This document shows, in pieces, positions 24,801 through 64,000 of a stretch of 64,000 nt of DNA. The notes below the pieces were generated by a model that had not been told where the DNA came from, ran no database searches, and was given only the letters and a program-made list of their open reading frames with translations. Every line of letters starts with the position of its first letter. The stretch's first letter is position 1. Source of the stretch: Nitrospirales bacterium (GTDB lineage Bacteria; Nitrospirota; Nitrospiria; Nitrospirales; UBA8639); NCBI GenBank assembly GCA_029261295.1, contig JAJDBP010000009.1:62001-126000 (forward strand), given 5' to 3'. A program made the position numbers and the translations under genes.

Positions 24801-24999
24801 ATGTCCCAGTCGGTTTTTATCGTTCCTGCCTGTTTGACTTAATCAAATCCTAGCTGTTTCTTGAAAAATTGTTTTTGAGTTTTCTCGTTACAAAAACCTA
24901 TCCAAACAGTCCTAAAGGAATGTTTAGAAAGGCCGGATAGATCTAAAGTCTCGATTGTGGTCTGCGGACTGTATTTATTTTGAACCCAAACGGTGTGAT

Positions 25000-25740
25000 A
25001 TGCGGAAAAATGGTTCTTCTTCAAAAGGGATGAACGGTCAGCCAGTTCAAACAGGAATAGAATCGAACTGGATTGATGGCGAGACGTACCCTCAACCAGA
25101 AAGTGTCAATGATACGTTTTGGCGTTGGGAATTTCTTCGTCGCCGAGCCGATTATCGACAGGATTGGGAAAAGTATTTTCAGTCAACCTATGAATATGAT
25201 GTCGCCTGTGCTAACGATCCTAAATTCCCTACGCGCTATCGAAAGAAAGTTGTTTCACCTGAGCATCCTGCATTCAAAGCGCGCATGCCAAATTCCCTAG
25301 AAAAGTATCATTTGAGCGGATTACCTAATCCGGCGATCTCGAAACCGTGGATGCTATCGTTTGATTCCAATTATGGGCGCATTTATTTTGGACAAGGGCC
25401 GGATTGGTTGGGGGGAGGCGAAGAAATTAGTTTATGTTTATCTGAATGGCGGGTAGCTGCAGTTTTTGATCTCAAGAAGCCTCTTTCTCCTCAAATGGAT
25501 AAAGTGAAAACAGATTTATTGGAATGGCAAGAACATCAAGTAGGTCGGAATCTAGATCGGAGAAAATCACGAGATGAATGGCCTTTGTATTTACGGGTGT
25601 TGGATGGCGTTGATCTAGGTGTTACTTTTCGAGAGATTGGACGACAGCTGTTTGATATTCAGGATGATGATGAGGCTGAAGCTCGGATTGCCCAGTTGTA
25701 TAAACAAGCCTGTCAAATCAGTTTGCATTTTCCGAATTGA
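25000..25740 (+). CDS. DUF6499/DUF2285-like protein preceding a DUF2791 ATPase
   Basis: The N-terminal part contains WRWEFLRRRADYRQDWEKYF, the signature of DUF6499, a 'transcriptional regulator domain' common on integrative elements of Proteobacteria. The C-terminal part (LYLRVLDGVDLGVTFREIGRQLF, then an Arg/Lys-rich helix) resembles DUF2285, which usually occurs with DUF6499. The combination suggests DNA-binding or regulation, probably of the ATPase gene 93 bases downstream. The start is uncertain: the frame runs back to a TTG at 24955, and ATG at 25000 or 25030 are both possible, with no good ribosome-binding site. Such genes are usually part of mobile or accessory regions. Confidence 0.65.
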   Translation: MRKNGSSSKGMNGQPVQTGIESNWIDGETYPQPESVNDTFWRWEFLRRRADYRQDWEKYFQSTYEYDVACANDPKFPTRYRKKVVSPEHPAFKARMPNSLEKYHLSGLPNPAISKPWMLSFDSNYGRIYFGQGPDWLGGGEEISLCLSEWRVAAVFDLKKPLSPQMDKVKTDLLEWQEHQVGRNLDRRKSRDEWPLYLRVLDGVDLGVTFREIGRQLFDIQDDDEAEARIAQLYKQACQISLHFPN

Positions 25741-25833: not shown

Positions 25834-28413
25834 ATGAGTAAATTAATCGATGCGTTAAACCGGCTGCAATCACTCAAAGATGAGGCTCCTCTTATTGTGA
25901 GGACTGCCGCGAGTCAAGTTTCGCCAATTGTTTCCCCTCCTCCACCAAGTTCGGAAAGGGTGGCGACAAGGGGAAAGAGGAAATCTTCTTCCCAAAAGTC
26001 TGTAGCCGATGAGAAGCCTTTATTTAATATGGCCGGCAAAGATTGGTTAAGTGTCCTTCAGCAAGATTATCTGAATAATTTTGTGCGGGAAGGGGGAGGA
26101 GCGATTAAATTTGCCGTGTTTCCCCAAGAGGAGGCTCTTCAGGGATGTCAACAATCTTTGAATGGTATGGCCAATGCGGAAGGCTATTGTTTTGCCAAAG
26201 TGGATTCACGATTCACGAAAGTCCATATGGTCGAGCGGCTTTTCCACAAGATTGCTAAGCAAATAGATTGGGATGATTTAGCCTACCGATTTGTGGTTCG
26301 ACTCTTAGAGGAGCATGGATACCAAATTCCAAACAATCGCAGTGAATTTTCATTGCGACAGGTTGCGACGTTAAATGAGCGGAAAGAGCCCATGCTGCGG
26401 CGAGATGTTCAAACCTGGTTAGAAAAGTCTATTGAAGGGGATATTGGACTGTGTCGTGAATTTCGTATGGCCATGATTCGATTATGTTTAGCGCAATTTG
26501 ATGCCGGTGATTCGGATCGGGTACTGGCCACCTCAGTTAAAGAATGGTTATGTGGAGATCTTCGCCTGGTCTCTGGAGTGAAAAAGGCTCTTATTTATCA
26601 GAAGGTTGCTCGTCATAATGCGCGGTATATGTTGTCTTCGTTAACTCGGTGGCTGCGCTTAACGGGAAAAGGAGGGTTAATTCTCTCGCTTGACATTTCT
26701 CGCTATTTTACCAAGGGGCAGGAATCTTCTGGCGATGGTTCTTTGACGTTTACCCCATCGGCCACGATGGACGTCTTTGAATTGCTTCGGCAATTTTTAG
26801 ATACGGCTGATGAAATCGAAGGGTTATTAATGGTGGTCTTGGCTCCGGAAGCGTTCCTCACTGATTCTCGTCGAAGTGTGGATCGATACGAAGCCCTGAA
26901 ACTTCGAGTGTGGGACGATGTGCGTCCCAGGCATCGCCAGAACCCTTTGGCCACGTTGGTCAGGATTCAAGGGCAGGGAGCAAAGCAGGATGGATCTACC
27001 CAACTGGCGCCGTCCAAACTACAGGGACATGGTACCGTTCCAGATGTTGAGGCTAGACGTGTTGTGGAGGGTCTACGGGCTGGAGTCCCCAATAAACATG
27101 TGGTGACGGCATTAGGGTGTTTGCAACCTGAGGTTGAAGGACGGTTTCGTCGAATGATGGAAGCCACCCAACAAAATGTCACAACCGGACCTTGCCCAAG
27201 GGGAATGGTACTTGAGGGCGAGTTTGGAAGTGGAAAGTCACATGTGTTGGAATATTTGCAACATTTGGCCTTGGATGCCAATTTTATTTGTAGCCGTATC
27301 GTGATTAGTAAAGAAACACCGTTGTATCATCCGGTACGCCTTTTTTATTCGGCGATTGAATCTGCTGTTGTGCCAAATAAACAAGGTGAAGTATTTGCAG
27401 AAATTGCTGGGGAGTGTGATGTGTGGACCCCAAGGTATAAGGAGTTGGTCGCTTGGGCCAATAATCCTGAAAATCTGGTCGACTCGCGATTTGCCGCAAC
27501 CCTTTTACTCTATGAGCGAATGAGTTCTGATGCGGAACTTGGTCATCGCATGGCCAGATTTTGGACGGGGGATCCTATCGGGGTTGGCGATTTGAAAAAA
27601 TATCTGCAAGAGGCGGGATTCGGAGGACAATATACCTTTGGTCGAGTGTCGGCAACAGACCTGGCTCTTCAACGTTTTCAATTCGCATCACGTTTGATGC
27701 AAGCCGCTGGATATGCCGGGTGGATTTTACTCATTGATGAAGCCGAATTAATCGGGCGATATTCTATGACTCAGCGAGCGAAATCTTATGCAGAAGTGGC
27801 GAGATTGATGAATATGATTGAGGGGCAGATGCTCCCCGGGCTTGGGACGGTTATGGCTTTGACGAATGATTTCCGAGAGGAGATCTTAGAGAAAAAAGGG
27901 GATAGTGTGAAAATGTTGGAGAAGCTGCGTGCCAAACAAACCGACGTGGATCGAGTGTTAGCTGACAAGGCGGAAAAAGGCATGGGACTACTCAAGTCTC
28001 AGCGCATCCCGTTAGGACATCCTTCTTTTGATACTATTCAAGAAGTTCATCAGATTGTTCGAGGCTTACATCTCAAGGGCCATGGGTGGCATATGTGGGA
28101 AAATGTCTCAGAGCATTCAGTAGAGAATGTGCCTGGCAAAAGCATGCGGAAACATGTAAAAAGTTGGGTTACTGAATGGGACCTCCTTCGTCTCTATCCT
28201 GGTGAGGAATGTGAAATTGAAACGTCTACGTGGAAGCCTTCTTATGAGGAAATGGAGGATACGTCAACTCAACGTGTGTCTGAACCCATTCACTCTGAAC
28301 CAATGGCCAAGGAAGCTCCAAAAGCGTTGAATGCATCCGAAGACGTGCCTGACTTGGTGGCTCCTTCCAATTCTACGGTACCCACTTCTTCTGTTGCACC
28401 CACCTCTTCATAA
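25834..28413 (+). CDS. DUF2791 (BrxC/BrxD-family) large P-loop ATPase, paralogue 1
   Basis: This is an 859-residue STAND/AAA-like ATPase of the BREX-associated DUF2791 type. A disordered Ser/Pro/Lys-rich leader (1-65) precedes an N-terminal half (about 68-400) that resembles the same fold but has no Walker A motif. The C-terminal half opens with LRAGVPNKHVVTALGC, then Walker A GEFGSGKS (462-469), ISKETPLY, and Walker B ILLIDE (631-636). A Pro/Ser/Thr-rich tail closes the protein. It is more similar to the truncated paralogue at 62613 than to that at 60234, sharing GYQIP, NERxEPxLRRD and ARYM. AGGAAG lies six bases before the ATG. It probably couples ATP hydrolysis to a DNA-directed defence or stress function; this is inference from the family. 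Confidence 0.8.
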   Translation: MSKLIDALNRLQSLKDEAPLIVRTAASQVSPIVSPPPPSSERVATRGKRKSSSQKSVADEKPLFNMAGKDWLSVLQQDYLNNFVREGGGAIKFAVFPQEEALQGCQQSLNGMANAEGYCFAKVDSRFTKVHMVERLFHKIAKQIDWDDLAYRFVVRLLEEHGYQIPNNRSEFSLRQVATLNERKEPMLRRDVQTWLEKSIEGDIGLCREFRMAMIRLCLAQFDAGDSDRVLATSVKEWLCGDLRLVSGVKKALIYQKVARHNARYMLSSLTRWLRLTGKGGLILSLDISRYFTKGQESSGDGSLTFTPSATMDVFELLRQFLDTADEIEGLLMVVLAPEAFLTDSRRSVDRYEALKLRVWDDVRPRHRQNPLATLVRIQGQGAKQDGSTQLAPSKLQGHGTVPDVEARRVVEGLRAGVPNKHVVTALGCLQPEVEGRFRRMMEATQQNVTTGPCPRGMVLEGEFGSGKSHVLEYLQHLALDANFICSRIVISKETPLYHPVRLFYSAIESAVVPNKQGEVFAEIAGECDVWTPRYKELVAWANNPENLVDSRFAATLLLYERMSSDAELGHRMARFWTGDPIGVGDLKKYLQEAGFGGQYTFGRVSATDLALQRFQFASRLMQAAGYAGWILLIDEAELIGRYSMTQRAKSYAEVARLMNMIEGQMLPGLGTVMALTNDFREEILEKKGDSVKMLEKLRAKQTDVDRVLADKAEKGMGLLKSQRIPLGHPSFDTIQEVHQIVRGLHLKGHGWHMWENVSEHSVENVPGKSMRKHVKSWVTEWDLLRLYPGEECEIETSTWKPSYEEMEDTSTQRVSEPIHSEPMAKEAPKALNASEDVPDLVAPSNSTVPTSSVAPTSS

Positions 28414-28607: not shown

Positions 28608-29936
28608 GTGCAACATTTTCGTTCATCACACCTCTCAAAAATTTTTCGTATGTGGTGGCCCTTAGCGGGAAGTTGGCTCCTTATGGGTGTGGAATTACTT
28701 CTCGTAGCTGCCACCATTTCTCGCTTAGCCAATCCAGAAATTCATTTGGCGGCCTATGGTGGTGTCGTCTTTCCGCTCTCGCTGTTCATCGAGGCCCCCA
28801 TCATCATGATGCTGGTGGCTTCCACAGCTCTATGCAGAGATTGGGCAGCTTACTGCCTCATGCGAAATTTTACGTTAATACTAGGAGGAGGATTGACCCT
28901 CCTCCATGTCCTTTTAGCATTTACCCCCTTGTATGATGTGGTGGTTGAAGTATTGTTAGGTGCACCTCAGCCCGTTTGGGAGCCAGCTAGAATGGGCTTG
29001 CAGATGATGACGCCTTGGACTCTGTCGATTGCTGTGAGACGATTTTTCCAAGGGCTCATCATTCGTGGGGGGCGAACACGCTTAGTTGGCTTAGGAACCC
29101 TTATCCGGTTAGGAGTGAGTGCCTCGGTGTTATTGTGTGGATTGATGATAGGCACCTTCCCAGGAATTATCGTGGCTACGGGAGCCCTGGTTGCTGGAGT
29201 ACTTATTGAGGCGGGCTTTATGTATGCGTGCGTTCGACCGGTTGTGCAAGATTTTCAACAACAACGAGTGGGACAACAACCACCATTGACCATCCAATAT
29301 TTATGTACCTTCTATTGGCCGTTAGCCCTCACTCCTCTGATTTCCTTAGCCACGTTGTCTGTTGGAAGTGCGGCCATCAGTCGAATGCCACGTGCCCTGG
29401 AATCATTAGCCGTCTGGCCGGTGTTAGGGGGGTTGACGTTTATGTTTCGTAGTGTAGGAATTGCGGTTCAGGAAGTTGTCGTGACATTTTCTGATAGACC
29501 CGAATTTCTTCGCCCCTTACAACAATTTGTTTGGATTATTTCACTCGGAGCGAGTGGCACGTTGCTGTTGATCGCGGCCACCCCTCTTTCTACTATTTGG
29601 TTTGAATCAATTGCCGCTCTCAGTCCAGAACTATCAGCTCTAGCGGGGTCTGCGCTCTGGGTGGCCATTGTACTTCCGGCCTTGAGTCCTTGGGAAAGTT
29701 ATTTTCAGGGAGAATTGGTGTATCGTGGTGCCACAACTTATGTGACGCAGGCGGTTCTTCTCTACCTCTTGGGAACTTCGAGTCTACTCATTCTAGGAGT
29801 GTTGTATGGACAGATTACGGGGTTATATGTGGGAATAGCGGCCACCTTAACTGGGATTAGTATTCAAACGTGGTGGCTATGGTGGCACAGTCACAACGTG
29901 CATGGCTCGCACCTTCATTCTCAGGATTGCACTTGA
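28608..29936 (+). CDS. MOP-superfamily flippase resembling the ANK (progressive ankylosis) family
   Basis: A polytopic inner-membrane protein of 442 residues with about 12 hydrophobic segments. The N-terminal part (WWPLAGSWLLMGVELLLVAATISRL, then AAYGGVVFPLSLFIEAPIIM) and the middle (YWPLALTPLISLAT and RMPRALESLAVWPVLGGL) match the pattern of ANK-like members of the MATE/MOP superfamily. It is likely an exporter or flippase; the substrate is unknown. The frame starts with GTG at 28608, and an ATG at 28650 is an alternative. The GTG keeps the short basic leader before the first membrane segment. Confidence 0.75.
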   Translation: MQHFRSSHLSKIFRMWWPLAGSWLLMGVELLLVAATISRLANPEIHLAAYGGVVFPLSLFIEAPIIMMLVASTALCRDWAAYCLMRNFTLILGGGLTLLHVLLAFTPLYDVVVEVLLGAPQPVWEPARMGLQMMTPWTLSIAVRRFFQGLIIRGGRTRLVGLGTLIRLGVSASVLLCGLMIGTFPGIIVATGALVAGVLIEAGFMYACVRPVVQDFQQQRVGQQPPLTIQYLCTFYWPLALTPLISLATLSVGSAAISRMPRALESLAVWPVLGGLTFMFRSVGIAVQEVVVTFSDRPEFLRPLQQFVWIISLGASGTLLLIAATPLSTIWFESIAALSPELSALAGSALWVAIVLPALSPWESYFQGELVYRGATTYVTQAVLLYLLGTSSLLILGVLYGQITGLYVGIAATLTGISIQTWWLWWHSHNVHGSHLHSQDCT

Positions 29937-30168
29937 TCAGGATAGCCTGAAATTAGAAGAATCGGCTTCTCAGTATTAAACTAGAAGGACTCAGGTTTTT
30001 TTAATCCCATTCTGAATGTAAGCCCCTTCAAGTTGTAGGGATTTTCATGCAGGAAGTTTAGGCATTTTAAACGGAGAGCTGATGGTAACTATTTGAATTA
30101 TTTGATGAAATTATTCTTAAGCCCAAATGCAACAAGAAGGAACATTCCTTGCTGTTCTTTATGGCTGT

Positions 30169-30555
30169 ATGAACAAAATTTTAATCATTGAGGATGATGA
30201 ACTTGTTCGAGATTCGGTTTCGCTCTCCTTAGAATCTGCTGGGTATATTGTTATGGAGGCCGCGACCTGTCAGGAAGGTCTTCAAAATCAAAAGCAATTT
30301 GGAGCGTCTGTGATTATTTCCGATGTCGTGTCTTTAGAACATGAAGGAGGGGCGCTTCTTCGGCGGATTTGCCACCAATCTTCTGATCTTCCGCTGATCA
30401 CGCTCACTGGGACCTTGCCTGATTCTGAAACGACACCGTCCTGGTCCCAGCCCCAGCCCACTAAGGATGAATCTTCTCACACGTTGCAAAAGCCCTTTAC
30501 TCTCGACGAACTTCTGGCGACCGTTCAAAGCGCCTTAACTCGTTCCGTCCTCTAA
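30169..30555 (+). CDS. Stand-alone response-regulator receiver domain (atypical)
   Basis: A receiver-domain protein of 128 residues from the ATG at 30169, where MNKILIIEDDE forms the usual first strand. Acidic pocket residues (EDD) are present, the probable phospho-acceptor Asp is in ISDV, Thr is in TLTG and Lys is in QKPF. The Asp is followed by VVSLEHEGG rather than the usual xMPxxxG loop, and a Pro/Ser/Gln-rich insertion (SETTPSWSQPQPTKDESSH) precedes the final Lys. It may therefore be a weakly phosphorylated or divergent receiver. The longer frame from 30127 lacks support. No histidine kinase is adjacent. Confidence 0.75.
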   Translation: MNKILIIEDDELVRDSVSLSLESAGYIVMEAATCQEGLQNQKQFGASVIISDVVSLEHEGGALLRRICHQSSDLPLITLTGTLPDSETTPSWSQPQPTKDESSHTLQKPFTLDELLATVQSALTRSVL

Positions 30556-59027: not shown

Positions 59028-59275
59028 TGTCTTCCTCTTGTCCTCAGCATACAGCTTCTTTCTCTCTCATGAAAATTTAGAAAAACGAATGGTGCGTTCT
59101 GCCAAGGTCTTTCTCACTTTTCCTCATTTAGTCATACTTCTTCGTTGATAACATTAAGAACTTCGGTGGTTTTGCCGAATGGTTTCTTAGGAGCCTGAGG
59201 TTCTTGGTTGTGTGAATCTGATGATCAATGTCACGAATACAATCCAAGTGATGTTCTTACCGAAATAGGATGTCT

Positions 59276-60151
59276 ATGTCTGAGTCGTACGATTCTGAAT
59301 CGTCTACAGGAGTGCTAGATGCGGTGGAGACTAGTACTCCACCTCAAGAATCTGCTCAACACAAAGCAGGAAGTTTGGAACAAGCCTTAGCTGAAATTGA
59401 AGCTGAGGCCGGAGACCTCGTTAAAACGACCAAACAGGTGATGGCGTCGTTTAAAAAGATCAAAGACGCAGCCAAAGTTGGGGATTTGGTCAAACTTCGC
59501 AAATTACTTGATGAAGGCAAATCGGCCACGCTCGAGTTAGGTTGTGATTTTCTCAAAACGCAAGAACGACTGAACTTTGATGAATCCAGTTATCTGGCTG
59601 GTAAAGATTTTCGTCAGGAGCTCCTCACGACTGCCCAACAAATGGGCGTGAATCTCTATGAACATGATGGGTATTTGTTTTCCTATCCTGTCCTGTTGAA
59701 AATTTTACATAAAGAACGGGCTGTGTCTATCGACCGGATGCGGGAAAGTCGGTTGCGTCCGTCGGTTCTTGTCAAACGCCTGAAGGAAGTCCAGAACAAG
59801 CCCTTACGGTTTAAACCTCAAACCTTTCTCGAAATGTTGTATACCGCGTATTCCATTGTTGTCGCGGGACGAGGCAAGCATTTGATTGGGAAGGGGACCG
59901 TCATCCCGCTTTTGGAACTTTATCAATTGTTGACCTTATTGCCGTGGCAAGCCAGTGAATACACCCGGCAGGAATTTGGCCGGGATGTGTATTTGCTCGA
60001 TAAAAGTGGAACAATTACGACCAAAAACCACCATCGGGCAAATTTCCATGCGAGTACTGGCGTGCGTGATGTCTCAAAGACGTTGACTGTGATTGCACAA
60101 GGAGGACGAGAGAAAACCTATTACGGGATTTCCTTTGTCAAAGTCGGATAA
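59276..60151 (+). CDS. Uncharacterised first gene of the ATPase operon
   Basis: A 291-residue protein of no recognised family from the ATG at 59276, which has TAGGA five bases upstream; the ATG at 59270 would add two residues. An acidic polar N-terminus (1-30) is followed by a helical segment (about 33-105, LEQALAEIEAEAGDLVKTTKQVM). The globular C-terminal part contains RQELLTTAQQMGVNLYEHDGYLFSYPVLLKIL and MLYTAYSIVVAGRGKHLIGKGTVIPLLELYQLLTLLPW. No membrane segment or signal peptide is seen. It precedes the tandem DUF2791 ATPases by 82 bases on the same strand and probably works with them, perhaps as a sensor or adaptor. That role is inference from position only. Confidence 0.7.
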   Translation: MSESYDSESSTGVLDAVETSTPPQESAQHKAGSLEQALAEIEAEAGDLVKTTKQVMASFKKIKDAAKVGDLVKLRKLLDEGKSATLELGCDFLKTQERLNFDESSYLAGKDFRQELLTTAQQMGVNLYEHDGYLFSYPVLLKILHKERAVSIDRMRESRLRPSVLVKRLKEVQNKPLRFKPQTFLEMLYTAYSIVVAGRGKHLIGKGTVIPLLELYQLLTLLPWQASEYTRQEFGRDVYLLDKSGTITTKNHHRANFHASTGVRDVSKTLTVIAQGGREKTYYGISFVKVG

Positions 60152-60233
60152 CCATGACGGCTTGTCGGTTAAGTTTTCTTAGGGTGCACCGACAAGAGGA
60201 AGCAGAATAAAAGGATAATAAAGGGAAAAAACT

Positions 60234-62510
60234 ATGTCTCCACAGGAATGGTTAAAAGTACTGAAAACCGCCTATCTTCAGGGCTATATTCGTCGAGGTG
60301 GCTCGTCGGTCAAGTTTGTGGTGGTTGAAGAAGCAGAAGACACCAACGCTGTGGTTTCTGGGGTTGGGGAAATAGCCCAGGAGGAAGGGTTTGTCACCAT
60401 TGAAGCCGACTCTCGGCAGACCAAGGTTCAGCTCATTGATTTGTTATTCCAGGAAATGGCCAAGCAAGTAGATTGGGAAGTGTTGGCCTATGACTGTGTG
60501 AAGAAACTTTTCCAGGAGAATCAACGACACATTCCAGGTACGCGCGAGGAATGTAGCTGGCGGTCCTTAGCGGAAGCGAATAGTTGTGATGAAGCCACGA
60601 TTCAACGTGATGTGAATTCGTGGTTAGAACGCAGTTTGTTCCAAGATTTTCAAATGAGTCGGGAATTTCGGTTGGCCATGATTCAATTATGCCTAGCCCA
60701 ACTCGACCCTTCGGGACGTGATTCTAAAGAGGCCGGAGCGATCCAGTCGTGGCTTCGTGGGGAATTGCGCCAGATGTCTGCGCTGAAGAAACTCCTGATT
60801 TTCCAAAAGGTCACTCGCAGCAATGCCAGGGATTTAATTGCTTCGTTTGCACATTGGGTACGTCTGCTTGGAAAGCCCGGAGTGGTGTTAACTATTGATA
60901 TTTCTGCTTTCTTAGGCAAGAAGGGGGTTGATCCGAAATCCCTGAGTTATTCTCCTTCGGCAGTCATGGATGCGTATGAAATGTTACGGCAGTTTATTGA
61001 TGGCAGTGATGACATGGAAGGCCTGTTGTTAGTCGTGGTCACGCCAAAAACATTTTTGACCGATCAACGATTAGGGCTGAATCGATATGAAGCGTTGAAG
61101 CTAAGAATTTGGGATGATGTCCGCGATAAAACCCGCCCGAATCCGTTTGCGCCAATGGTTCGAATGACCGAGGCAACGGCTCAATTTGAAGAGAATCGAT
61201 TAGCGGCTCGAGTGGGAAGTCGGAAGGATGATGTTCAACACCAGCGAGTCATTGAGTCTCTTCGCGCTGGAGTTCCCAGTCCAGGAGCCGTCAAAGCTTT
61301 GGGTTGTCCTCAACCTACGGTCAAATCAAAGTTCCAGCAGGTGTTGCAGGATGCTCAAGATAGTATTCATAAAGGGTGGACCACGAAGGGGTTGCTCATT
61401 GAAGGTGGTTTTGGCACGGGGAAATCCCATCTATTGGAATCACTGCGACATATGGCTCTTGAGTCCAAGTTTGTGTGTAGTAAAGTGGTGATTAGTAAAG
61501 AAACCCCCTTGTATAGCCCGGCTTTAATGTTCCGAGCGGCCATTGGGGCTGCCGATATTCCCCAAAAACGAGGGGATGCCTTAGCTGAAGTGGCAGCAGA
61601 TTTGAATTTTAAAAGTCCTCAATATGCAGAATTTTATGAGTGGGTCCATCGTCAAGGCGGAGAGATTGATGGTCGATTTGCCGCGACCTTATTTCTCTAT
61701 GAACGGATGGTGAATGATCCCGAACTGAGTCATCGGATGATTCGATTTTGGGCCGGTGATCCGTTAACGGATGCTGAGATTAAACGATACCTCAAGTCTT
61801 GCGATGCCAATGTGACCTACCGTTTTGAACGCGTGTCCCCTATGGAAATGGCCTTGCAACGGTTTAAATTTGTCTCCCGGCTCATGATTGCAGCAGGGTA
61901 TTCTGGATGGATTTTACTCATCGATGAAGCCGAAATTATTGGCCGCTATTCCTTTAAGCAGCGAGCCCAATCTTACGCGGAATTAGCACGATGGTTAGGG
62001 CGACTCGAGGCGTCGAGTTTTGCGGACTTGGGGTATAAATCTGGGTTGGCGGCCGTCATGGCGTTGACTGATGATTTCCAAAGCGCAATCTTAGAGGAAA
62101 AGGGTGATCGAGAAAAAGTTCCAGAAAAGCTGAGGGAAACCGGCTCGGAGACTGATCTTGTTTTGTCTCGTCAGGCAGAACAGGGTATGCGATTAATCGA
62201 GTGCGAGCGGATTCCGTTAGTGGGACCCTACGATCAATTGGTGGAAGATATTTATCATAAAATACGCGCCATTCATGGGGCGGCCTATGGATGGGAACCT
62301 CCTCAGGTTCCGACGATTGAACGCTTGTCGAGTACGCGGATGCGTGAATATGTCAAAGGGTGGATTACCGAGTGGGATCTCAAGCGATTGGATCCCGATC
62401 AGCAAGTGGAAATTGAGTTGACGGAAATCAAACAAGATTATTCCGAAGATATTGAGTTGGAAGGTTCTCAGGAAGAAGCCTTGCAACCGGCCCTTGCAGA
62501 ATCTCCCTAG
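60234..62510 (+). CDS. DUF2791 (BrxC/BrxD-family) large P-loop ATPase, paralogue 2
   Basis: A 758-residue paralogue of the ATPase at 25834 without its disordered leader. The N-terminal half (about 1-330) opens with PQEWLKVLKTAYLQGYIRRGGSSVKFVV, a strand-loop where an active member would have Walker A but only GGSS appears. The C-terminal half has LRAGVPSPGAVKALGCPQPTVK, Walker A GGFGTGKS (391-398), VVISKETPLY and Walker B ILLIDE (560-565) followed by AEIIGRY. The tail is acidic. AAAGGG lies about eight bases before the ATG. The next gene is a close relative 102 bases downstream, so the two may form a hetero-oligomer. It probably drives an ATP-dependent step of a DNA-related system. Confidence 0.82.
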   Translation: MSPQEWLKVLKTAYLQGYIRRGGSSVKFVVVEEAEDTNAVVSGVGEIAQEEGFVTIEADSRQTKVQLIDLLFQEMAKQVDWEVLAYDCVKKLFQENQRHIPGTREECSWRSLAEANSCDEATIQRDVNSWLERSLFQDFQMSREFRLAMIQLCLAQLDPSGRDSKEAGAIQSWLRGELRQMSALKKLLIFQKVTRSNARDLIASFAHWVRLLGKPGVVLTIDISAFLGKKGVDPKSLSYSPSAVMDAYEMLRQFIDGSDDMEGLLLVVVTPKTFLTDQRLGLNRYEALKLRIWDDVRDKTRPNPFAPMVRMTEATAQFEENRLAARVGSRKDDVQHQRVIESLRAGVPSPGAVKALGCPQPTVKSKFQQVLQDAQDSIHKGWTTKGLLIEGGFGTGKSHLLESLRHMALESKFVCSKVVISKETPLYSPALMFRAAIGAADIPQKRGDALAEVAADLNFKSPQYAEFYEWVHRQGGEIDGRFAATLFLYERMVNDPELSHRMIRFWAGDPLTDAEIKRYLKSCDANVTYRFERVSPMEMALQRFKFVSRLMIAAGYSGWILLIDEAEIIGRYSFKQRAQSYAELARWLGRLEASSFADLGYKSGLAAVMALTDDFQSAILEEKGDREKVPEKLRETGSETDLVLSRQAEQGMRLIECERIPLVGPYDQLVEDIYHKIRAIHGAAYGWEPPQVPTIERLSSTRMREYVKGWITEWDLKRLDPDQQVEIELTEIKQDYSEDIELEGSQEEALQPALAESP

Positions 62511-62612
62511 TTGGATGACTCGTCAGCTTGCCTGGATGTTCTGATGATCTAGGTCAGTAGGACCTAAGTGGGTTGAGCTTTCCTTAAATTCCCAAGCTAA
62601 AGGATTTGTATT

Positions 62613-64000
62613 ATGGAGTTACGGCCTCAGGAATGGTTTCAGACGATTCAACAAGAATATCTCCAACGGTTTGTGGGGCAGGGTGGGTCGTCGGTGAAAT
62701 TTGTAGTGACACCTTCCGACGCGGATCGGGTGCTTGTCCAGGATCAATTGTTGGCATTGGCAGAGAAAGAACACTATGCCTGTGTCCGGGTGGATGCCAA
62801 AGAAACGAAGATCCATATGATGGATAAATTTTTCCATCAGGTCTCTCGTCGTGTTCCCTGGAATGACTTGGCCTCTCAATTCGTCCGACGATTACTTCAA
62901 GAAAACGGTTATCAAATCCCTGAAGGGAAAGAGGATTTTTCCATGGCTGGGGTGGCTCGGATGAATGAACGAGCGGAACCCTTATTGCGAAGAGATTTAA
63001 ACACGTGGTTGGAAAGGGCGATTTATCATGACACGCAGATGTGTCAAGAATTCCGAATGGCCATGATTCGTCTGTGTTTGGGGCAAATGGATTCTGGAGC
63101 AGAAAGTCCATTCATGACCGAACCGGTGAAGGCTTGGTTGTGCGGAGAATTGCGTCAGATTTCATCTCTGAAAGAAGCGTTAATTTTTCAAAAGATTGTC
63201 AGGACGAATGCCCGGTATATGTTTGCGTCATTATCCCGCTGGTTTCGACTTGTTGGGAAAACGGGTTTAGTGGTGTCATTGGATTTGAGTCGCTGTTTGG
63301 AAAGTAAAAAGGCGACTTCTCCCGAGGGCCTCTATTATGGAGTGTCTGCCACGCTGGATGCGTATGAAATGTTACGACAGTTTATTGATGGCACGGATGA
63401 ATTAGAAAGTCTCTTATTGGTGGTATCCGTTCCTCCAGGGTTCCTAACGGATACGAAACGAGGTCTCAGTCGATATGAGGCGTTGAAATTGCGTATTTGG
63501 GATGAAGTACGCGATCGACAATATCAAAACCCCTTAGGAGCGTTGATTCGATTAGGAGCAACCCCAAAGGACGAAGGCGAGGTGGGTGTTTCAGAGGATC
63601 ATTTTAGTCAAACGTCTATGGCTAATGGTGATGTGAGCCATCAACGGACCATGGAGGCCTTACGATCGGGCGTGCCCAATCGAGATGTGGTGAAGGTATT
63701 GGGGAGTCATCAGCCTGATCTCGAAGGAAAATTTCGGCGAATGTTGCAACAAATGCCCGATCAGGCTGCTCAAGGGGTTTCCACGAAAGGTCTGGTGATT
63801 GAGGGAGGGTTTGGGAGTGGGAAGTCCCATTTGCTGAAAGCGTTACAGCATGTGGCCATTGAGCAACAGTTTGTCTGTAGCCCCATTGTTATTAGTAAGG
63901 AAACTCCTTTCTATAATGTGGCGACCTTGTTTCGGGCAGCCATGAATGATGCCATTGTCCCTGGGAAACAGGGTGATGCGTTAACAGAAGTTGCAGGAGA
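62613..64000 (+). CDS. DUF2791 (BrxC/BrxD-family) ATPase, paralogue 3, cut by window end
   Basis: An open frame of 462 complete codons runs from ATG 62613 to the window edge with no stop. AAAGGA lies eight bases upstream. The protein opens with LRPQEWFQTIQQEYLQRFVG, matches the same N-terminal half (KIHMMDKFFHQVSRRVPWNDL, GYQIPEGKEDF, NERAEPLLRRD), and reaches LRSGVPNRDVVKVLGS and Walker A GGFGSGKS (398-405), then ISKETPFY. The Walker B region is beyond the window. It is more similar to the distant 25834 paralogue than to its neighbour at 60234, so duplication and dispersal happened after the two types diverged. Confidence 0.85.
   Translation, partial: MELRPQEWFQTIQQEYLQRFVGQGGSSVKFVVTPSDADRVLVQDQLLALAEKEHYACVRVDAKETKIHMMDKFFHQVSRRVPWNDLASQFVRRLLQENGYQIPEGKEDFSMAGVARMNERAEPLLRRDLNTWLERAIYHDTQMCQEFRMAMIRLCLGQMDSGAESPFMTEPVKAWLCGELRQISSLKEALIFQKIVRTNARYMFASLSRWFRLVGKTGLVVSLDLSRCLESKKATSPEGLYYGVSATLDAYEMLRQFIDGTDELESLLLVVSVPPGFLTDTKRGLSRYEALKLRIWDEVRDRQYQNPLGALIRLGATPKDEGEVGVSEDHFSQTSMANGDVSHQRTMEALRSGVPNRDVVKVLGSHQPDLEGKFRRMLQQMPDQAAQGVSTKGLVIEGGFGSGKSHLLKALQHVAIEQQFVCSPIVISKETPFYNVATLFRAAMNDAIVPGKQGDALTEVAG

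What the first reader, a model, noticed from the sequence alone, without database searches (positions are those of the whole stretch)
59276..64000. Operon of an unknown protein and two tandem BREX-type ATPases: candidate undescribed system
Seen: three consecutive plus-strand genes with gaps of 82 and 102 bases, the last two encoding paralogous DUF2791-type ATPases; the third runs off the window. Known: BrxC/BrxD-family (DUF2791) ATPases are parts of BREX phage defence and occur with helicase or TerB-type genes in other putative conflict systems. Inference: the operon may encode a defence or DNA-stress complex with two non-identical ATPases and a novel adaptor. No pglX, pglZ or brxL is in view, so it is not a standard BREX locus as far as visible.
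Basis: partly seen in the sequence, partly recalled or inferred. Interest (0 to 1): 0.85.

Follow-up and report, generated by a model that had tools for sequence, protein, structure and literature searches.

The report
Conserved paired ORC-like ATPase cassette
A family of nitrite-oxidising bacteria carries, at a fixed place in its chromosome, a slowly evolving set of genes for a DNA-machine-like motor protein (each copy a dead and a live motor domain fused together) plus an unknown partner protein and a probable nitric-oxide-sensing switch; it looks like a phage-defence part turned into a household gene, but its job is still unknown.

Summary
The three genes are real. U (59270-60151, 293 aa) matches no family. 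A1 (60234-62510, 758 aa) and A2 (62613 onward; complete at 774 aa outside the window) both pass Pfam BrxC_BrxD. In the family (Nitrospirales) the cassette sits beside the same flanking genes in several genera; the paralogue tree suggests vertical descent after one fusion and two duplications; U and A1 evolve as slowly as housekeeping genes. The only PF10923 proteins in these genomes are these paralogues, so no BREX. The next genes are a histidine kinase with a CxxCH (haem-c) Tll0287 domain, a proposed NO sensor, and a single-domain receiver; the kinase was found only in genomes that have A1. Best reading: a defence-type BrxD ATPase turned into a chromosomal ORC/TnsC-like machine under two-component control, not an active phage-defence island. 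Function untested. Plasmid relatives (unknown-BrxD-BrxD-BrxHI-like helicase) suggest the defence ancestry.

The parts
59270..60151 (+). U: 293 aa protein of no known family; predicted N-terminal helices (residues ~32-124) then a mixed alpha/beta C-terminal part; candidate adaptor
   Evidence: ORF; no family over cut-off; alignment of 12 relatives, 32-84% identity; low-confidence model, secondary structure only
60234..62510 (+). A1: 758 aa two-module BrxD-like (ORC/Cdc6-clade) ATPase
   Evidence: structure model; fold matches
60234..61193 (+). A1 N-module (about residues 1-320): BrxD-like, without P-loop, Walker B reduced to a lone Asp; a separate gene in genus g4 and family f20
   Evidence: profile positions 69-335 matched by residues 44-315; motif table; split genes
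61230..62393 (+). A1 C-module (about residues 333-720): active-looking AAA+ module
   Evidence: Walker A G-x-FG[TSA]GKSH and Walker B 'DE' in all 34 rows; ORC2, ORC, TnsC, BrxC, RdrA matches
61404..61427 (+). Walker A of A1 (GGFGTGKS, residues 391-398)
61923..61928 (+). Walker B Asp-Glu of A1 (residues 564-565)
62613..64000 (+). A2: second two-module ATPase, cut by the window end (full length 774 aa, ends at window-equivalent 64937 = L004:6938); tandem duplicate of A1
25834..28413 (+). A3: third paralogue, 859 aa, about 31 kb upstream of U; same two-module build with an N-terminal extension
24955..25740 (+). V: 261 aa protein directly upstream of A3 (weak match to a proteobacterial regulator-like domain); kept next to A3 in g1 and g9

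Best explanation
The cassette is a chromosomally fixed, vertically inherited ATPase machine derived from a BrxD-type (ORC/Cdc6-clade AAA+) defence component. Each A protein is a fused pair of one dead and one live AAA+ module, so an assembly of A1 and/or A2 would alternate inactive and active sites, as in ORC or NSF. U is the partner/adaptor that brings it to its substrate, probably DNA. ATP binding and hydrolysis by the C-modules would drive assembly on, or remodelling of, that substrate (for example loading a helicase). The linked haem-c (NO/redox) histidine kinase and single-domain receiver would switch the machine on or off by phosphorylation. Shown here: gene order, two-module build, motif state, split form in relatives, duplication history, conservation, linkage and co-occurrence of the kinase with A1. 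Inferred: complex formation, DNA substrate, helicase loading, NO control, and absence of a phage-defence role.
For: Same flanking genes (SDR, lipoprotein, 285-aa protein, PyrE, HD-domain, TrmI) beside the cassette in genera g1, g7, g8, g9; in g5 (G024) most of these flanks lie about 16 kb off. Paralogue tree consistent with the grouping of genera, with one fusion then two duplications. dN/dS against L046: U 0.037, A1 0.034, A2 0.063, versus PyrE 0.068 (dS above 1, so only roughly comparable). GC of U/A1/A2 0.46-0.48, equal to the window's 0.477. Active C-module and dead N-module in every row that covers them; N and C as separate genes behind U in g4 and f20. C-module fold: A. pernix ORC2 Z 10.2, TnsC 9.9, ORC 9.9, BrxC 9.5. 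The kinase follows the ATPase by 9-34 bp in g3, g7, g8. In 19 genomes tested at E 1e-60 an orthologous kinase occurs only where A1 is present; U, A1, A2 and the kinase are all missing in G031 and G034, congeners of G024 that keep A3. Tll0287 domain with CxxCH in g1, g5, g6, g9; such kinase-fused domains behave as NO sensors (PMC12889525).
Against: No biochemical or genetic data. Slow evolution and vertical descent do not exclude a defence role. The U model is too poor to assign a fold (pLDDT 40), so 'adaptor, DNA-binding' is a guess. In g1, g5 and g9 the kinase lies roughly 0.4-0.7 kb beyond A2, with a small RNA-binding gene on the other strand in between in g5 and g9, so co-transcription is not assured there. 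In g3, g7 and g8 the kinase has lost the haem domain. A3 occurs without U in G031 and G034.
Confidence: 0.45

Rival explanations
1. It is a standing anti-phage system, a cousin of Shango or of the BrxD-BrxHI dyad, fixed in this lineage; the helicase is supplied from elsewhere in the chromosome.
For: BrxD family membership and a SngB profile match at E about 1e-16. A Desulfomonile plasmid carries hypothetical-BrxD-BrxD-BrxHI/SngC-like helicase, and an Aulosira plasmid has the same four genes directly behind a phosphatase-brxD-helicase run that looks like BREX-2. U is weakly similar to the first gene of that set (hhalign score 26.4; 150 shuffles: mean 14.7, max 23.0). The best SngC-like helicase of each genome (an Lhr-sized ORF) is chromosomal.
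Against: Fixed chromosomal position, tree following the genera, slow evolution; no U-like gene in viral contigs or plasmids and no C-module match in phages; those helicases also occur in relatives that lack A.
Confidence: 0.3
2. It is a target-selection or chromatin-like complex: a TnsC/ORC-type filament or ring that marks DNA sites, used for chromosome organisation or replication control.
For: Fold matches to ORC2, ORC, Cdc6 and TnsC.
Against: The same fold matches also include NSF, ClpX and RdrA with similar Z; fold does not give function; no winged-helix domain could be assigned.
Confidence: 0.2
3. It is a degraded BREX remnant.
For: BrxD-like ATPases remain without pglX, pglZ or brxL.
Against: Intact reading frames, motifs kept in all rows, strong purifying selection and duplication of paralogues.
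Confidence: 0.02

Closest known systems
BrxD of type-2 BREX (PF10923 / NF033438), an ORC-Cdc6 AAA+ paired with BrxHI helicase (PMC12839542)
   Same: Family membership by profile; ORC/Cdc6-clade fold; intact Walker motifs in one module
   Different: Two modules per chain, the first dead; no pglW/X/Z or brxHI beside it; scores 79-97 bits against the BrxD equivalog cut-off of 350
Shango (SngA TerB-like, SngB ATPase, SngC helicase; PMC10250203)
   Same: Three-gene unit with a BrxC/D-type ATPase and an extra protein; SngB profile match
   Different: U is not TerB-like by Pfam; no helicase in the unit; ATPase doubled and fused; chromosomal core locus rather than a variable defence hotspot
Unnamed plasmid module hypothetical-BrxD-BrxD-BrxHI-like helicase (Desulfomonile NC_018026.1, Aulosira AP018310.1)
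   Same: Small unknown protein followed by two BrxD-like genes; weak profile similarity of the first gene to U
   Different: Has the helicase; both ATPases there keep a P-loop, so neither is dead; plasmid-borne
ORC / archaeal Orc1-Cdc6, TnsC, NSF
   Same: C-module fold; mixing of active and inactive AAA+ modules (ORC, NSF; general knowledge)
   Different: Sequence identity 15% or less; function unknown here

Membership tests
BrxC_BrxD family (PF10923, ex DUF2791) | Profile score above the gathering cut-off (22.2 bits) | tested here: met
   118 (A1) and 110 (A2) bits; A3 stretches over cut-off
BREX BrxD equivalog (NF033438) | Score above the curated cut-off (350 bits) | tested here: not met
   79.3 and 96.6 bits
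BREX system | pglZ, pglX or brxX, brxC, brxL and the rest in the locus | tested here: not met
   Next genes are SDR, kinase, receiver; PF10923 elsewhere in these genomes only in the three paralogues. pglX and pglZ models were not run genome-wide
Shango | TerB-like SngA | tested here: not met
   U: no Pfam match at E 0.1, no PADLOC match
Shango | SngC helicase in the same operon | tested here: not met
   None between SDR and the kinase/receiver; genome-wide SngC matches are elsewhere
ORC/Cdc6-clade AAA+ | Walker A, Walker B and AAA+ core fold | tested here: met
   C-module only: motifs, fold matches (Z 9.9-10.2; middling)
ORC/Cdc6-clade AAA+ | Ring or filament assembly with an arginine finger | not testable with these tools
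   No multimer prediction; arginine finger not assigned
sCache_heme (Tll0287) NO-sensor kinase, linked gene | CxxCH in a PF11845 domain between two TM segments, fused to a kinase | tested here: met
   PF11845, HisKA and HATPase_c matches; CVTCH at residue 195; TM segments read by eye only

The most novel reading that the evidence does not exclude
A previously undescribed cellular AAA+ system of nitrite-oxidising Nitrospirales: fused dead/live ORC-like ATPases with a dedicated partner U, switched by a nitric-oxide-sensing two-component pair, exapted from a BrxD-type phage-defence module.
Probability: 0.3. Interest if true: 0.8.

Novelty: new variant of a known kind. Interest (0 to 1): 0.58.

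Why it matters
No tested function for BrxD was found in the papers read here; the proposal in print (PMC12839542) is that it loads or activates BrxHI helicase. A lineage in which BrxD-like modules were fused, duplicated and kept for what looks like a cellular role, with split forms in relatives, gives a BREX-free setting in which to find out what this ATPase does. It would also be a case of a defence component turned into a housekeeping one, and the linked predicted NO sensor points to a testable input in organisms whose metabolism revolves around nitrite.

Tried and rejected
U fold: the AlphaFold model from 13 close orthologues had pLDDT 40, so no fold search was made. PDB profile search with U gave mainly helical-bundle, coiled-coil and designed-protein matches, taken as composition. 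Viral-contig scans with the U, plasmid-U and C-module profiles gave nothing useful; one weak P-loop-only match, L129, was not pursued. Plasmids: no U relative; phages were searched with the C-module only: none. The idea that the g4 DEAD/DSHCT helicase pair is part of the system: seen divergent to U in G033 and G239, but not shown in G268 or f20 and not in g1, so left open. The small protein D behind the split ATPase genes in G091 and G268 is confined to those two of 296 genomes, so it is not core. Shango and BREX membership rejected (see Membership tests). Promoter and terminator scan no better than shuffles. Direct hhalign of U against the single Desulfomonile protein gave nothing; the two-sequence profile gave E 0.0078, probability 5%, and a global alignment E 0.00075: kept as weak evidence only.

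Full report
Observation. The three ORFs and their gaps are as reported. The window is G000:C37:62001-126000. Reading on, A2 is complete at 774 aa (L004:4614-6938), followed about 470 bp later by a histidine kinase (Tll0287, HisKA, HATPase_c) and a receiver-only response regulator. A1 and A2 pass Pfam BrxC_BrxD; U matches nothing over a cut-off.

Two modules per ATPase. In A1, BrxC_BrxD matches in more than one stretch: the N-terminal half (residues 44-315) aligns to profile positions 69-335, and a second start of the profile (positions 6-111) maps to the C half. In an alignment of 34 A proteins, including concatenated split forms, the N-half has no P-loop (a conserved GGxxxK stretch instead) and at most a lone Asp at Walker B in all rows that cover it. 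The C-half has Walker A (G-x-FG[TSA]GKSH) and Walker B 'DE' in all 34. The AlphaFold model (pLDDT 68, pTM 0.70) matches A. pernix ORC2 (Z 10.2), TnsC (9.9), yeast ORC (9.9), ClpX, BrxC (9.5) and RdrA through the C-module; chain-wide matches go to the double-ring ATPase NSF with high rmsd. Foldseek alone gave no E below 0.001. The fold class is therefore supported and the function is not.

Split forms. In genus g4 (G033, G239, G268) and family f20 (G091) the order is U, N-module gene, C-module gene. The tree puts these outside all fused forms under midpoint rooting. Within the fused forms, A3 separates first, then single-copy A1 of g3, g7, g8, then the A1/A2 tandem pair in g1, g5, g6, g9, with mostly well-supported clades that match the genera. 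One fusion and two duplications followed by vertical descent is the simplest reading.

Distribution. The triad or its remains are found in the g1 genomes searched (U not found in G006 and G018) and in further genera of the family. It is absent from g2, g10, part of g4 and the other families of the order. Across 296 genomes of the phylum only this family and f20 have it. PF10923 hits in the 41 relatives searched fall only in the three paralogues. Named relatives are Nitrospirales/Nitrospirota MAGs, for example NPIRA03, NPIRA06 and OFTM42.

Fixed place and slow evolution. The cassette is flanked by the same SDR gene and block (lipoprotein, 285-aa protein, PyrE, rhodanese, HD, REC, TrmI) in g1, g7, g8 and g9; in G024 (g5) the block lies about 16 kb away. 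In G031 (g5) the flank block is present without the cassette. dN/dS of own against L046: U 0.037, A1 0.034, A2 0.063, PyrE 0.068, kinase 0.109, SDR 0.131. dS is above 1, so these are rank comparisons only. GC equals the window mean.

Kinase link. In g3, g7 and g8 the kinase begins 9-34 bp after A1. A search of 19 genomes at E 1e-60 found orthologous kinases only where A1 exists; G031, G034 and the g2, g4 and g10 genomes tested have none. A C-terminal-only match in G054 and an N-terminal-only match at a second place in G022 are other kinases. The sensor carries CxxCH in g1, g5, g6 and g9, the same genera that have A2, and is lost in g3, g7 and g8, where no A2 was found; this is probably one evolutionary event, so it is not independent evidence. 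Tll0287 domains fused to signalling modules have the properties of NO, not oxygen, sensors (preprint PMC12889525, one such protein measured). NO control of the cassette is an inference.

Defence ancestry. tblastn with the f20 C-module found BrxD genes of BREX-2 loci and, in a Desulfomonile plasmid, a four-gene set: 279-aa unknown, BrxD-like, BrxD-like, BrxHI/SngC-like helicase. The Aulosira plasmid carries the same set right behind a phosphatase-domain gene (pglZ-like), BrxD and a BrxHI-like helicase. The first gene of the set shows weak but above-shuffle profile similarity to U over its C-terminal part. BrxD is described as an ORC-Cdc6 ATPase forming a dyad with BrxHI, perhaps its loader (PMC12839542); Shango has TerB, ATPase and helicase (PMC10250203). 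The present cassette lacks the helicase and TerB and is not a member of either.

Conclusion. Parts and history are well supported. The mechanism (paired dead/live AAA+ ring or filament, adapted by U, switched by the NO/redox kinase and receiver) is a hypothesis at about 0.45 against a defence reading at about 0.3.

Noticed in passing
window 28608-30555: A membrane (MATE/Wzx-like) protein and a receiver-only response regulator follow A3 in the same order in g1, g5 and g9; a second BrxD-like ATPase near a stand-alone receiver.
   Followed up: partly
L098:7165-12591 (NC_018026.1) and L099:7001-12395 (AP018310.1): Plasmid four-gene cluster unknown-BrxD-BrxD-BrxHI-like helicase, in Aulosira directly behind a pglZ-like, brxD, helicase run; looks like an unnamed defence module.
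   Followed up: partly
L068:6448-9677 (-), L092:6255-9445 (-): Beside the split U-N-C genes in g4, a helicase is in two genes with swapped order: Helicase_C plus DSHCT first, DEAD second.
   Followed up: partly
L062:9012-9326 and L071:6014-6301: A small RRM-like RNA-binding protein gene lies on the opposite strand between A2 and the kinase in g5 and g9.
   Followed up: no
L091:374-937 (-), L093:1-414 (-): A homologous small protein follows the split C-module gene in one f20 genome and one g4 genome only.
   Followed up: partly
L118:1-348 and L119:1-333: Two contigs of G083 start at the same point inside a C-module gene with near-identical sequence and different downstream genes, suggesting a repeated copy.
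   Followed up: no
window 62611-63111 (-): A 166-aa antisense ORF over the start of A2; no sign that it is a gene.
   Followed up: no
L004:18476 onward: A secreted-looking protein of repeated roughly 80-aa units (motif GEGQVTSDPEGINC...).
   Followed up: no
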